DNA of 40,962 nucleotides from Nitrososphaerota archaeon (lineage in GTDB: Archaea > Iainarchaeota > Iainarchaeia > Iainarchaeales > GCA-2688035), in contig JAFCCH010000002.1 in assembly GCA_017610265.1 (NCBI GenBank), positions 1-40,962 of the forward strand. The letters run 5' to 3'. The position numbers and the translations under genes were made by a program. The notes beneath the pieces are model-generated. The model was given only the letters and a program-made list of their open reading frames with translations. It was not told the origin of the DNA and ran no database searches. Shown one piece after another: positions 17,158 to 21,880 of the stretch (positions are counted from its first letter, which is position 1; every line of letters begins with the position of its first letter).

Positions 17158-17631
17158 TTATTCCTGGCCGGTCATTTTCCGCATTTCGGCAGAGGCCTTC
17201 AAAAAGCTTGAAACAAACTTGTCTGCCTTTGACCTGGATCCAAATTCGGTCTTTAGCAAGCCCACTTGTTCAACAACTATAACATCTTTGAACCATGTTG
17301 GCCTTGTCCCAACCGCTGCAAGCCGTTTGACAAGGGTTTCAGTGATTTTGTGAATTCTTTGCCTTTTTTCACTGTCCAAAACACCCATTCTATCCAAAGA
17401 GTTCTTGACAGCCATTCTTCTGTTTACCTGATTGGCTTTTTGAAAAAGGTCTGCTCGACTAAAATTCCTTGCCATCTTTGTAAGGCCAACTGCAGTCCTA
17501 GCCAAAATTTCTTGAGAAATGCCTTGCTTGCCCCTTGCAATCATTTTCTTCTTTGCAGCCCTTTGCCTGCGAAAGTTTTCTATACCTGGCCTGCTTGTTT
17601 TTCTTGCAGGAAACTTTCTTTCAATTGCCAT
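17158..17631 (-). CDS. Basic orphan protein
   Basis: 157 residues, Lys/Arg-rich, no recognised domain, Cys, signal peptide or membrane segment. The N-terminal 50 residues are strongly basic and low in hydrophobics (KFPARKTSRPG, RRQRAAKKKMIARGK), probably disordered; the rest is predicted helical (ILARTAVGLTKMARNFSRADLF, KRQRIHKITETLVKRLAAVG) and carries a PTWFKDVIVVEQVG segment that could be a short beta hairpin. The ATG at 17631 and the downstream folC are 41 bases apart on the same strand. Possibly a nucleic-acid-binding protein; it is not obviously related to the basic pair at 7.2-8.1 kb. Confidence 0.65.
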   Translation of the reverse strand: MAIERKFPARKTSRPGIENFRRQRAAKKKMIARGKQGISQEILARTAVGLTKMARNFSRADLFQKANQVNRRMAVKNSLDRMGVLDSEKRQRIHKITETLVKRLAAVGTRPTWFKDVIVVEQVGLLKTEFGSRSKADKFVSSFLKASAEMRKMTGQE

Positions 17632-17685: not shown

Positions 17686-20600
17686 TTATGAAAGCAATCC
17701 AAGCAAATTGCCCCATATTGCCCTCGCATTGAATACTACAGGTAGATTAGTGCAGCTGCTGTCACAGGAACCGTCATTATTGCAGACATCAAGGGTATTT
17801 CCGTCTGCGTCGTCACATTCCCCGTCAATTGAACAGGTTACAGCGCATTCTTCTACAGGAGGCTCTTCTACCGGCAGATCCTCTACAAGAGGCTCTTCTG
17901 GCACAGATTCTTCTTTAACTGGAGGATCTTCCTCAACTGGAAGCTCTTCCACAGGTGATTTTTCAACCAGAGGTTCTTCTACAGGAAGATCTTGCACTGA
18001 TTTATTTTTCTCTTCAGCACACCAACTATGACTATTGTCTTTTGCACACAATTCATCCAATTTAGCGCTTAACTTTTGGTTTTTTTCATTTAGTGCTTTC
18101 ACTGCTTCTGTAAGCATTGTTATTGTTGCTCCAAGGTCACGTCCTATTGTTGCTTCATCTACTTCCACCGCGCCAGTTGAATCTGTTACTGCTATTGTTA
18201 TCATTGTGGTTGCCTTCATTGGTCCGCCTCTTTGATCTACCTTGCTTTCCTTGCCTGGCTTTGTGTAAGGCAATTTTACCCTTGTGAATTCCGGCAACGA
18301 ACTGTGATCAATTTCTCCGTCTTCCCCTGTTTCAACTAACAGCAATTGTTCTAGTGCTTCCTGGCTGCTTCCTCCCCATCCTGGTGTGTGGTCTACGTGA
18401 ATTGATGCAAATGACTTGCCTGTTATCATTAGGTCTCCAAGGAAGTTACTGTCACCAGTGACTTGCAGGCTACCATTTATGTCTAATGCCACTGTTGGAG
18501 ATGAACTTATACCCAAACCTATTCCAACAAAGCCGCCGCTTTTGGCTAGCAAAATATTTCCAAAAGAGCCATTTGCATTGTTTCCTATACCGCCAGATCC
18601 TGTTGTTAAACTAATGTCTCCACCATCTCCTCCATCACTCGGGATGTGTACACCCGCAGTTGATTCTCCACCCGCTCCTGTTAGTAATTCAATGTCTCCG
18701 CCGTTTCCTCCAAAACTAGTATCCCCAATAAATGCGGCTCCTCCGATTCCGGTTGTAATACTAAACAATCCTCCGTTTCCTCCAAAACTATACTCTGCGT
18801 CTTTGACTGCTCCGCCTTTTCCTGTTATTAATTCAATTGGCCCACCTGCTCCACCATAATTGATTCCGCCAGCAGAGCCATTGTGTCCTCCTGGTCCTGA
18901 TGCTATTTTTACTCCTCCTCCAATTCCGGCATTATCTGTCATATAATCAGCACCTGGCCCACCTACTCCGCCATTTACGTCCAAAACGCGGGCAGCGTTT
19001 TCTATATATCCAATCCCTAGTTGGCCAAATATCTTTGTTGCTCCGGCAATGTTCAAATCGCTTCCAATTTCAAGAGGACTTCCACCAAACAAGGTTCCTG
19101 AAATCTCTATATTAACAAAGTTTGCATCACCCAAAACGTTTAGGTCCTGCACCAAAACAGAGTTAGCATTGTAGTTTGTCAAATCCTTTCCAAGCGTTAC
19201 TGCTGCTTCTGCTAAAGATTTAACATTGTAACCCATAGCAATTGCTCCAGCTCCAACAGTGAAGGAATTGCTATCACTGTAACCCATTGTTATGCTGCCT
19301 TGTCCTGTTGACTTCAGTTCAGATCCATTTGCAGCCATTCCAAGAGCAATACTTCCACTATTAGTAGAATATATTTTACCCGCGGTTCCTGTGCTACCCA
19401 TTGCAATGCTTCCTGATCCAGTTGAAAAGAGTTCCCCTGACTTTCCAACAGTTCCCATTGCAATTGCCCCTGTTCCACTTGCAATAAGTTGTGCACTAGT
19501 AGAGTTTCCCATTGCAACAGAACCATTTGCTGTTGATTGAATGTAGGCAATATCCCACTTTCCATCAGAATATCCGCCTGCCATTGACCCCTTTCCACTT
19601 GCAGTTATGAATGCATTATCTCCATTGTTATAGCCATATCCCCAAGCAATAGCCCCCATATTTCCTGTACTGTTTTCTCCTGAAGAAGTTGTATTTCGCC
19701 CAATTGCAAGACTTCCGTTAGTATCATCCCAAATAAACTGGTTGCTTCCAGATATACTATACAATCCTCCTGAAATTCCCACATTTACAAAGTTGCTGTC
19801 GCCTGTTACGTTAATTCCGCCATTAATGAAACTAATCCCACTCACAGTGAAATTCGCAACATTCAAATCACCCAAAACGTTTAGGTCTTGCACCAAAACA
19901 GAGTTGGCATTGTAGTTTGTTAAATCTTTTCCTAATGTTATGCTTGCTTCTGCAATGCTTCTGACATTGTATCCTAATGCAATGCTTCCTTTTCCTTGTG
20001 TGGCCATATTTGAATCAGAGTAACCCATTAAAACTGAGCCTTCTCCATAAGACATTAAAGATCCTCCTTGCGATTGTCCAAAGGCGAAACTTCCAATTCC
20101 TATGCTTTTTAGTTGATTTGGTGATGACCATCCTCCTGCAAAACTATAATTTCCTTGTGCTACTGGATTACTTCCTATTGCAAGAGAAGCGTCCCCGAAA
20201 GCATCTGTTCCTCCTCCAAAAGCAACTGCTCCACTTCCTCTTGCAGTTACATCATTTCCTGCTGCAAATGATTCTGACCCACTTGCTGCTGAACTGTTAC
20301 CCATTGCCACAGAATATTGTCCACTTGCTGTTGTAAAAGTTCCAAAGGCTGCTGAACCACTTTGAGATGCTGTTGTATTCCAACCTTGTGCAAAAGAATA
20401 TTGCCCACTTGCCTTTGTGGTATTTCCTACTGCCATTGAGGTATCTCCCCATGCCATTGCATTGTTTCCTGCTGCAAAAGAATAGTCTCCTCTTGCTCCT
20501 CTTTCGTTTCCTGCTGCTTTTCCTGTTACAAAGGAACTTGTTCCAAAAGCAGTTACTCCCTCTCCAAAAGCTAAACTTGTATCATTACTACTATTTGCAT

Positions 20601-21684
20601 CTGCTGATTGTAGCCCTCCTCCAATCTTAACTGGACTTCCGCCAAAGATTGTTCCAGAAACTCCAATGTTTGCAAAATTACTATCTTCTGTTACGTTTAG
20701 TGTTCCTTTTATGTTTACAATTGTGTCTCCTGCTACTATGTCTTGTATTTGATATTGGCTTGCGTTCATTGTTATTAATTTTGCTGCTCCTGCGCTAATT
20801 GTTATGTTGTCATTTGCGTTAAGTTGGAAGGAACTTGATGAACCCATTTGAACTGCTGCTGCACTTGTAACAAATGACAACTGCCCTCCATGTGTTCCTG
20901 TAAAATTAACTGTGTCTGCTGCTGCTGCTTCTGATGAGAATGTTAGTGAGTCTATTGCTCCTCCATCTCCATAATTTATTTTTGCTGCGTTGTTTGAAAT
21001 CCAAGGTTCTCCACTTATTCCAATATTTGTAAAGTTGCTGTCGCCTGTGAAAGTTGGCGCAAACGTGCTTGCATACCAGGAGTTGAAGTCAGAGAATTGC
21101 ATAAATGCGTTCAGATCGATTGTCATTGCCTTTTTTGCGATGAAAGCTGAGGGGTGTGAGTTAAGTTTTACTCTTGGAACCTGGGTTGAACCGTCGACTG
21201 TTATCTGAACCCATCTTTCTGCATTGAAATCAGAAGTTGTAAGATACTGTGTTAAATTGTTGCTGCCGAGGTTTGCTGCAAAGACACCGTTGGTTACAGT
21301 TAAGCCATGGGTTTCAGTCCAAAGAGCAACTCCGCCGCTGTTGCTGTCAAAGAGTTCGAAGATAAATGTATAGTCACCTGAGAGGGCCTGACCACTGCTG
21401 TTGGTAAGCTTTCCCTGTAGAGTAATTTCCTCCGAGATTGCAAATGCGGCCGGAAGAATGGAGAGGAAGAGAATTGCAAGGCTTGCAAGCGCGAAAAGCC
21501 TTGTGAAGTTAATGGACTTATTATATATCACCCTGCTACATAATCTCTCCTTATTACTTGTGACTTTGCAGAGGAATGTAACTTCTTTTTCGGAGATCTC
21601 CTTTGAACTTGTTTCTTGAGGAATCACCTTACTTAGTAGAGTGTTTGCTATTGCGATAATTCCCGATATTTTGGAATCCCTCAT
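17686..21684 (-). CDS. Giant surface protein with YadA-like head repeats
   Basis: 1332 residues from the ATG at 21684, which has GGAGGTGA eight bases upstream; the ORF track's GTG lies inside that ribosome binding site and is not used. Order: a 60-residue charged N-terminus, a hydrophobic signal/anchor (FALASLAILFLSILPAAFA) near 64-82, a beta domain of tail-fibre type to about 190, then two blocks (roughly 370-600 and 650-835) of 14-residue-like repeats such as GDYSFAAGNNAMAWGDTSMA, the SxAxG pattern of YadA/Hep_Hag left-handed beta rolls. Collar-like motifs (GDSNFxNxGISG) recur five times. A Gly-rich block (900-1065), a VALDING-type element, a heptad coiled coil (1185-1215), a PVEE repeat stalk and a Cys-rich end follow. 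Likely a secreted trimeric fibre or adhesin; cell attachment at the C-terminus is unclear. Confidence 0.85.
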   Translation of the reverse strand: MRDSKISGIIAIANTLLSKVIPQETSSKEISEKEVTFLCKVTSNKERLCSRVIYNKSINFTRLFALASLAILFLSILPAAFAISEEITLQGKLTNSSGQALSGDYTFIFELFDSNSGGVALWTETHGLTVTNGVFAANLGSNNLTQYLTTSDFNAERWVQITVDGSTQVPRVKLNSHPSAFIAKKAMTIDLNAFMQFSDFNSWYASTFAPTFTGDSNFTNIGISGEPWISNNAAKINYGDGGAIDSLTFSSEAAAADTVNFTGTHGGQLSFVTSAAAVQMGSSSSFQLNANDNITISAGAAKLITMNASQYQIQDIVAGDTIVNIKGTLNVTEDSNFANIGVSGTIFGGSPVKIGGGLQSADANSSNDTSLAFGEGVTAFGTSSFVTGKAAGNERGARGDYSFAAGNNAMAWGDTSMAVGNTTKASGQYSFAQGWNTTASQSGSAAFGTFTTASGQYSVAMGNSSAASGSESFAAGNDVTARGSGAVAFGGGTDAFGDASLAIGSNPVAQGNYSFAGGWSSPNQLKSIGIGSFAFGQSQGGSLMSYGEGSVLMGYSDSNMATQGKGSIALGYNVRSIAEASITLGKDLTNYNANSVLVQDLNVLGDLNVANFTVSGISFINGGINVTGDSNFVNVGISGGLYSISGSNQFIWDDTNGSLAIGRNTTSSGENSTGNMGAIAWGYGYNNGDNAFITASGKGSMAGGYSDGKWDIAYIQSTANGSVAMGNSTSAQLIASGTGAIAMGTVGKSGELFSTGSGSIAMGSTGTAGKIYSTNSGSIALGMAANGSELKSTGQGSITMGYSDSNSFTVGAGAIAMGYNVKSLAEAAVTLGKDLTNYNANSVLVQDLNVLGDANFVNIEISGTLFGGSPLEIGSDLNIAGATKIFGQLGIGYIENAARVLDVNGGVGGPGADYMTDNAGIGGGVKIASGPGGHNGSAGGINYGGAGGPIELITGKGGAVKDAEYSFGGNGGLFSITTGIGGAAFIGDTSFGGNGGDIELLTGAGGESTAGVHIPSDGGDGGDISLTTGSGGIGNNANGSFGNILLAKSGGFVGIGLGISSSPTVALDINGSLQVTGDSNFLGDLMITGKSFASIHVDHTPGWGGSSQEALEQLLLVETGEDGEIDHSSLPEFTRVKLPYTKPGKESKVDQRGGPMKATTMITIAVTDSTGAVEVDEATIGRDLGATITMLTEAVKALNEKNQKLSAKLDELCAKDNSHSWCAEEKNKSVQDLPVEEPLVEKSPVEELPVEEDPPVKEESVPEEPLVEDLPVEEPPVEECAVTCSIDGECDDADGNTLDVCNNDGSCDSSCTNLPVVFNARAIWGNLLGLLS
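19127..19191 (-). repeat. 65-bp internal duplication, copy B
   Basis: This segment encodes KDLTNYNANSVLVQDLNVLG and matches 19868-19932 at all but about four positions, including silent sites. The two copies end the two head-repeat blocks of the surface protein and indicate a fairly recent internal duplication or gene conversion. Confidence 0.8.
19868..19932 (-). repeat. 65-bp internal duplication, copy A
   Basis: Partner of 19127-19191, encoding the same KDLTNYNANSVLVQDLNVLG peptide at the end of the first head block. Flanking sequences on either side have diverged much more than the repeat itself. Confidence 0.8.
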
Positions 21685-21692
21685 GTTTCTCG

Positions 21693-21700
21693 TCACCTCC
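21693..21700 (-). promoter_or_regulatory. Strong Shine-Dalgarno of surface protein gene
   Basis: GGAGGTGA on the minus strand, eight bases before ATG 21684. It decides the start codon: the in-frame GTG at 21696 lies within it, and the downstream in-frame GTG at 21531, which would leave a conventional signal peptide, has no comparable site. Confidence 0.75.
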
Positions 21701-21725: not shown

Positions 21726-21781
21726 CTACTTTTTTTCACGAAAAGTCACATTCCAACCGACTATTAATACAGTAAAGTAGT
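21726..21781. promoter_or_regulatory. Inverted repeat in divergent surface-protein/purE promoter region
   Basis: ACTACTTT (21726-21733) and AAAGTAGT (21774-21781) face each other across 40 bases; the right arm touches TTTATACTAC, a possible TATA box for the leftward surface protein gene. This would give a 5' leader of about 65 bases. The rightward purE promoter GTTTAAATT lies at 21841. An operator role for the repeat is only a suggestion. Confidence 0.3.
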
Positions 21782-21880
21782 ATAAATTGCTTTCCGGAAG
21801 GACGCCATTGTTTTTTTAAGGCAACAAAGCAGACATATTGGTTTAAATTTTCTTTAGCTCAAATGATTTAGGAGTTTTTT

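What the first reader, a model, noticed from the sequence alone, without database searches (positions are those of the whole stretch)
17686..21684. YadA/Hep_Hag-type head repeats in an archaeal surface protein
Two long blocks of SxAxG 14-residue-type repeats, collar-like GDSNFxNxGISG motifs, a Gly-rich fibre block, a coiled coil and a PVEE stalk make a layout like bacterial trimeric autotransporter adhesins or phage tail fibres, but without the outer-membrane beta-barrel anchor, as expected for a cell lacking an outer membrane. It may mediate attachment to a host or partner cell.
Basis: partly seen in the sequence, partly recalled or inferred. Interest (0 to 1): 0.62.

Follow-up and report, generated by a model that had tools for sequence, protein, structure and literature searches.

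The report
Archaeal YadA-head fibre adhesin family
A small-genome archaeon of the Diapherotrites carries a lineage-specific set of 15-18 genes for long modular surface fibres built from the same head repeats as bacterial trimeric adhesins, a repertoire that would suit it to grip many different surfaces or partner cells.

Summary
The minus-strand gene 17686-21684 (1332 aa from its ATG) has a signal peptide, two YadA-type head blocks, GDSNF collars, a Gly-rich block, a helix, a PVEE stalk and a Cys-rich tail. Pfam YadA_head passes its cut-off here and reaches 1e-38 in a paralogue. The larger finding lies outside the window: this gene is one of 15-18 paralogues (12 complete N-domains plus 6 partial ones at contig ends; 22 gene fragments, at least 48 kb, 3.75% of a 1.28 Mb assembly). 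Most share a promoter and leader, a signal extension and an N-domain under strong purifying selection; eight share the Cys tail; the middles differ. Five congeners have one N-domain match each. The genome is archaeal: a paralogue shares a contig with archaeal 16S rRNA. It is not a trimeric autotransporter (no YadA_anchor in the genome). Its N-domain resembles, below the curated cut-off, that of Bdellovibrio mosaic adhesive trimers. Best explanation: secreted, probably trimeric, adhesive fibres expanded into a recognition repertoire. Trimerisation, anchoring, orientation and ligands are inferred, not shown.

The parts
21777..21786 (-). TATA-like element TTTATACTAC, shared (one mismatch in C36) by 8 of the 13 copies whose upstream was read
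21693..21700 (-). Shine-Dalgarno-like GGAGGTGA; invariant in the 11 aligned copies
21505..21684 (-). ATG start and about 60-residue extension before the signal segment, with an invariant Leu-Cys pair; found only in this family in the six genomes of the genus
   Evidence: alignment A4, genus search
21439..21504 (-). hydrophobic signal segment ending in AxA (LPAAFA); the only strongly hydrophobic segment of the protein
   Evidence: hydropathy; last Ala invariant in all 16 aligned copies
21082..21438 (-). conserved N-terminal beta-rich domain, weakly matching NF053851 Bdello_MAT_N; dN 0.063, dS 1.02 between paralogues
21010..21045 (-). collar motif GDSNFTNIGISG
   Evidence: family pattern
19966..20589 (-). 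YadA-type head block 1, period 14
19867..19965 (-). neck module ending LGKDLTNYNANSVLVQDLNVLGD; near-identical module in 21 places in 13 of 16 family sequences listed
19768..19803 (-). collar motif GDSNFVNVGISG
19225..19734 (-). head block 2, longer repeats of period 19
19126..19224 (-). second neck module (85% identical in DNA to the first over 119 bases)
18517..18984 (-). Gly-rich block GGxGG, period 24; the same module lies at other positions in paralogues
18091..18456 (-). C-terminal domain (HVDHTPGWxGSSQEALEQLL...GRDLGATITMLTEA); six copies, all in this genome
18040..18156 (-). predicted helix, possible coiled coil
17848..17988 (-). PVEE-rich stalk or spacer
17752..17847 (-). six-Cys module CSxDGECDDADGNTLDVCNNDGxCDSSC, dN 0.065, dS 1.06 across eight copies
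17689..17751 (-). conserved terminal tail TNLPVVFNARAIW...; no membrane span by hydropathy

Best explanation
The gene encodes one member of a lineage-specific family of modular, secreted surface fibres in a Diapherotrites (Iainarchaeota) archaeon. Shown from sequence: a signal segment with a conserved AxA site and a conserved extension; a conserved N-domain; variable middles made of YadA-type head blocks, collars, Gly-rich blocks and, in some copies, tail-fibre-like modules; a shared Cys tail in eight copies; 15-18 copies against one N-domain match per congener. Inferred: the chains leave by Sec, trimerise through the head rolls, necks and C-terminal helix, and are held at the cell surface by a conserved end (more likely the N-domain, because copies that lack the C-terminal modules keep it). 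The variable heads then bind partner cells or other surfaces, and many differing copies widen the range of targets.
For: YadA_head at E<0.001 in the window protein and in 9 of 11 other family proteins scanned. All eight PDB matches at E<=1 are adhesin or invasin heads. Block 1 matches annotated YadA-like proteins on Burkholderia, Salmonella and E. coli plasmids. 18 N-domain matches here (12 complete, 6 partial) against 1 in each of five congeners. N-domain tree: 11 own copies form one clade at 100/99, C38 plus C17 another at 100/100. Low dN/dS in the N-domain and the Cys tail. Shared promoter and leader; a DNA search with one leader found only family genes. C38's copy directly follows a giant with five LamG domains, and G005's copy a LamG giant. 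A paralogue start shares contig C57 with archaeal SSU rRNA, 833 bits, best of its clan.
Against: No trimer was modelled. Foldseek of the N-domain-plus-head model gave no PDB match below E 0.001. The C-terminal model is poor (mean pLDDT 46), so fold and role of that domain are unknown. No anchor was identified at either end. Copies C92a and C7 lose frame before the Cys tail and C47 loses it before the signal segment. Most copies are cut by contig ends, so few full architectures are known. Congener counts come from draft genomes that may collapse or lose repeats. Function as an adhesin rests on homology of the heads alone.
Confidence: 0.64

Rival explanations
1. C-terminally anchored fibre in the orientation of bacterial trimeric autotransporters: heads on the outer, N-terminal side; helix, PVEE and Cys tail hold it to the cell. 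(This competes with the orientation in the best explanation, not with the adhesin reading.)
For: Order head, helix, Pro-rich spacer, conserved tail; the tail is under strong purifying selection.
Against: C38, G001, G003 and C76 end in short caps without these modules yet keep the N-domain; the tail has no membrane span.
Confidence: 0.35
2. The proteins form a structural coat or sheath rather than recognising partners.
For: Many copies, both ends conserved in several, Pro-rich spacer and Cys-rich tail that could cross-link.
Against: Middles differ strongly between copies while ends are conserved; head repeats match adhesins; congeners have one N-domain match each.
Confidence: 0.17
3. The gene is a virus-derived tail-fibre remnant.
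For: Head, Gly-rich and YAGYF modules resemble tail fibres; BFVD has two matches below E 0.001, one annotated as a YadA-like head; weak PHROGs matches of unknown function.
Against: No relative in phage records or viral contigs at the sensitivity used; the window neighbours with Pfam matches are mainly purine, folate and amino-acid genes; shared TATA-like promoter across dispersed copies.
Confidence: 0.04
4. Bacterial DNA was binned into an archaeal genome.
For: Head repeats are typical of bacteria; one same-genus record is labelled Candidatus Falkowbacteria.
Against: A paralogue start and archaeal SSU rRNA share contig C57; family members occur in five congeners and in a Candidatus Diapherotrites record of the same family.
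Confidence: 0.02

Closest known systems
Mosaic adhesive trimer (MAT) proteins of Bdellovibrio bacteriovorus (Caulton et al. 2024, PMC10769870)
   Different: N-domain matches NF053851 only at about 22-36 bits against a cut-off of 60; no S74 domain; here the C-terminal end is also conserved in several copies; YadA is not mentioned in that paper's text; archaeal host.
Trimeric autotransporter adhesins (YadA, UspA1, BpaC; type Vc)
   Same: Head repeats at family-level significance; order of head, neck-like module and helix.
   Different: No YadA_anchor barrel in the protein or genome; different signal extension; different conserved N and C domains; no outer membrane expected in an archaeon (general knowledge).
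Archaeal proteins already noted as YadA-like or TAA-like (nanohaloarchaeal SVXNc_0803, PMC10266531; Methanomassiliicoccales, PMC7883539)
   Same: YadA or TAA resemblance in archaea; in the nanohaloarchaeon also in an operon with LamG proteins.
   Different: Those passages report one protein, or 0-1 YadA-like domain per genome; no expanded family with shared N and C modules is described in the passages read.
Phage tail fibres with a Peptidase_S74 chaperone
   Same: Collar, Gly-rich and YAGYF-type modules (resemblance by eye).
   Different: No S74 match; no viral relative found.

Membership tests
Trimeric autotransporter adhesin (type Vc) | YadA-type head repeats | tested here: met
   PF05658 over its cut-off, 1.1e-38 in paralogue C19
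Trimeric autotransporter adhesin (type Vc) | C-terminal YadA_anchor beta-barrel | tested here: not met
   No PF03895 match in the genome at E<=0.01; the E. coli control rings; the genome is 82% complete but the window protein itself is complete and has none
Trimeric autotransporter adhesin (type Vc) | Homotrimer | not testable with these tools
   Only monomer prediction available
Trimeric autotransporter adhesin (type Vc) | Left-handed parallel beta-roll head | tested here: inconclusive
   Strands 14 residues apart, pLDDT 75-95; handedness not given; no PDB match at E<0.001
Mosaic adhesive trimer (MAT) | Conserved N-domain of about 130 aa directly after the signal peptide | tested here: inconclusive
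   A conserved domain is there in the 12 complete copies; NF053851 E 2e-6 here, 6.4e-9 in G005, none over the 60-bit cut-off, no match in 14 control genomes
Mosaic adhesive trimer (MAT) | Large repertoire in one genome with diversified fibres | tested here: met
   15-18 copies, differing middles
Mosaic adhesive trimer (MAT) | Variable C-terminal tip (S74 or another adhesive fold) | tested here: inconclusive
   Several endings: DHTPGW domain, HPLDEDK domain, EMYIDYNGTA cap, C76 short end; the first two are followed by one conserved tail
Mosaic adhesive trimer (MAT) | Trimer displayed on the cell surface | not testable with these tools
   Needs experiment
S74 tail fibre | Peptidase_S74 domain | tested here: not met
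   No Pfam match in the window protein or in the paralogues scanned

The most novel reading that the evidence does not exclude
An archaeon has a MAT-like recognition repertoire: 15-18 trimeric fibres with a conserved docking domain and shuffled, perhaps switchable, heads that select partner or prey cells.
Probability: 0.25. Interest if true: 0.82.

Novelty: new variant of a known kind. Interest (0 to 1): 0.55.

Why it matters
How small-genome DPANN archaea recognise partners is largely open. A multigene family of fibres taking at least 3.75% of the assembly, with conserved ends and variable heads, gives named domains that can be expressed and tested. It also suggests that bacterial-type adhesin heads can work without an outer-membrane barrel, and raises the question whether the MAT-like N-domain is an old or a transferred docking module.

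Tried and rejected
Diversity-generating retroelement: no RVT_1 in the genome at E<=0.001. Structured leader RNA: one six-pair stem without compensatory change, single-sequence z from -0.2 to -1.6; the leader is conserved DNA but not shown to be a folded RNA. A leader pattern search with zero mismatches found nothing and was replaced by a DNA search. PDB profile searches with the N- and C-domains gave nothing significant. Plasmids with the N-domain: no match. S74 and YadA_anchor not found. The idea that the N-terminal extension is a general signal extension of large surface proteins was dropped: in six genomes of the genus it occurs only in this family.
Full report
WHAT IS IN THE WINDOW. The frame 17686-21696 (minus strand) is 1336 aa from a GTG. 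Residue numbers below count from the GTG. In order: an extension (5-64), a hydrophobic signal segment ending AFA (65-86), an N-domain (87-205), a collar (218-229), head block 1 (370-577) and its neck (578-610), a second collar (632-643), head block 2 (655-824) and its neck (825-857), a Gly-rich block (905-1060), a C-terminal domain (1081-1202) overlapping a predicted helix (1181-1219), a PVEE run (1237-1283), a six-Cys module (1284-1315) and a short tail.

ARE THE REPEATS REAL. Pfam YadA_head gives E 3.8e-7, 30.8 bits, over its cut-off of 25. The eight PDB matches at E<=1 are all adhesin or invasin head proteins. Period 14 in block 1, 19 in block 2 and 24 in the Gly-rich block exceed shuffles (0, 0 and 3 of 2000 reach the observed value). 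Plasmid records annotated YadA-like in Burkholderia, Salmonella and E. coli match block 1. Of 11 other family proteins scanned, nine match YadA_head at E<0.001 (best 1.1e-38, C19), C62 only at 0.0066 and C47 not at all. In the phylum, 7 of 87 genomes have YadA_head at E<=0.001: this genome, four congeners, G006 and one distant genome.

WHOSE GENE IT IS. The genome (1.28 Mb, 95 contigs, 82% complete) is archaeal. Contig C57 carries a partial archaeal SSU rRNA (833 bits, best of its clan) and, at its other end, the start of a family member. The window genes with Pfam matches are mainly purine, folate and amino-acid enzymes.

A FAMILY, NOT A GENE. The protein matches 80 places in its own genome. 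I reduce these to 22 gene fragments totalling 48.0 kb, 3.75% of the assembly, many cut by contig ends. The N-domain profile finds 18 matches here: 12 complete, one two-thirds long and five halves at contig ends. Three partial matches are N-terminal and three C-terminal, so they may pair up, which gives 15 to 18 genes. Five congeners have one match each, and 17 of 87 genomes of the phylum have at least one, five of these weak. In the N-domain tree 11 own copies form a clade (100/99) beside G005 and G006, and C38 with C17 form another (100/100). I read this as a lineage-specific expansion. Draft assemblies can lose repeats, so the ratio is an estimate.

WHAT IS CONSERVED AND WHAT VARIES. Between paralogues mean dN and median dS are 0.063 and 1.02 for the N-domain, 0.145 and 0.848 for the C-terminal domain, 0.065 and 1.06 for the Cys tail, 0.307 and 0.598 for the extension. 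Middles differ in number and kind of blocks. The neck LGK(D/N)LTNYNANSVLVQDLNVLG, with small changes, recurs 21 times in 13 of the 16 sequences listed. The Gly-rich block sits near the C-terminal end in the window protein but mid-protein in C94 and C92a, which suggests module shuffling; recombination was not tested formally. The C-terminal domain is found in six copies, all in this genome. C62 and C66 carry another domain (HPLDEDK...) before the same PVEE and Cys tail, and C47 has that motif too. A plasmid protein of Aureispira anguillae resembles this alternative domain (37%, E 2e-9).

EXPRESSION AND TARGETING. Eight of 13 copies share a TATA-like TTTATACTAC (one mismatch in C36); the 11 aligned copies share a leader and an invariant GGAGGTGA. 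A DNA search with the C92b leader found only family genes. The leader shows no convincing RNA structure. The extension before the signal segment occurs in all five congeners, always in this family; its weak codon-position bias means it is little constrained apart from Leu-Cys. C76 lacks it.

SETTING OF THE OLDER-LOOKING COPY. In C38 the adhesin frame begins 8 bases after the frame of a 2016-aa protein with five LamG domains and Cys-rich modules. In G005 the adhesin follows a 1707-aa LamG protein; in G001 it follows a 1609-aa protein with Hint and Ig domains and no LamG match. In G006 a giant with Cys-rich modules and no LamG match lies in one 2230-codon frame with the adhesin, without a stop between. 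In G003 a LamG frame lies at the contig start, with other genes between; in G002 and G004 no such giant is seen in the sequence held. So a giant surface gene directly upstream is seen in four of these loci, and LamG in two. C38, G001 and G003 (second contig) end in a short EMYIDYNGTA-like cap instead of the C-terminal modules; C76 ends in another short stretch.

STRUCTURE. AlphaFold2 on residues 60-640 gave pLDDT about 80 for much of the N-domain and 75-95 for most of head block 1, with strands every 14 residues, but below 50 between the two. PDB Foldseek gave nothing below 0.001; BFVD gave two matches, one annotated as a YadA-like head of an uncultured Caudovirales phage. Residues 860-1230 modelled poorly except for the helix. 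No trimer could be run.

HOW IT PROBABLY WORKS. Sec export with cleavage at AFA (inferred from the conserved motif); trimerisation through rolls, necks and helix (inferred from known heads); attachment of one conserved end to the envelope (inferred; the N-domain is favoured because copies with and without the C-terminal modules share it); binding through the variable middles (inferred). The repertoire logic follows the published MAT family (PMC10769870), whose N-domain model matches here only weakly (27.7 bits; 35.5 in G005; cut-off 60). It works like a MAT or an autotransporter head; it is not an autotransporter, and membership in the MAT family is open.

PRIOR KNOWLEDGE. YadA- or TAA-like proteins in archaea have been mentioned before, as single proteins. 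In the searches made I found no description of an expanded archaeal family; the library holds open-licence papers only.

Noticed in passing
L010 6640-7060 (C92a); L020 744-1300 (C7); L016 2600-3060 (C47): Three family copies have frame breaks; the Cys tails after the breaks in C92a and C7 are still intact, so the breaks are recent, variable or assembly errors.
   Followed up: partly
L021 3005-9052 and 9060-12179: A 2016-aa gene with five LamG domains directly precedes the older-looking adhesin copy; G005 has the same order, G001 a Hint/Ig giant instead.
   Followed up: partly
L094 3-6692 (G006): A giant Cys-rich protein and the adhesin lie in one 2230-codon frame with no stop between them.
   Followed up: partly
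L081 / G005: A contig labelled Candidatus Falkowbacteria belongs to a genome placed in the same genus as this archaeon; the record name looks wrong or the bin mixed.
   Followed up: no
L025 14680-16176, L026 2-757: Alternative C-terminal domain (HPLDEDK) with 37% identity to a plasmid protein of Aureispira anguillae.
   Followed up: partly
L023 1578-10046 and 12268-19998: Frames of 2823 and at least 2577 codons after a family fragment on C91; probably giant surface proteins, not scanned.
   Followed up: no
L016, about residue 213 of the frame 3-2891 (C47): A carbohydrate-binding-module-like motif NGTFDNGSNW inside a family member (by eye).
   Followed up: no
L021 800-1642: Pilin-like start (KKAQAGLEYLMTYGWALILV, by eye) joined to an F5/8 type C domain, near the LamG gene.
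   Followed up: partly
L089 2-4828: Giant protein of G001 with Hint-type domains in two places, just upstream of the adhesin.
   Followed up: partly
window 17158-17631: 157-aa ORF just downstream of the adhesin with no Pfam match over cut-off and no NCBIfam match.
   Followed up: partly
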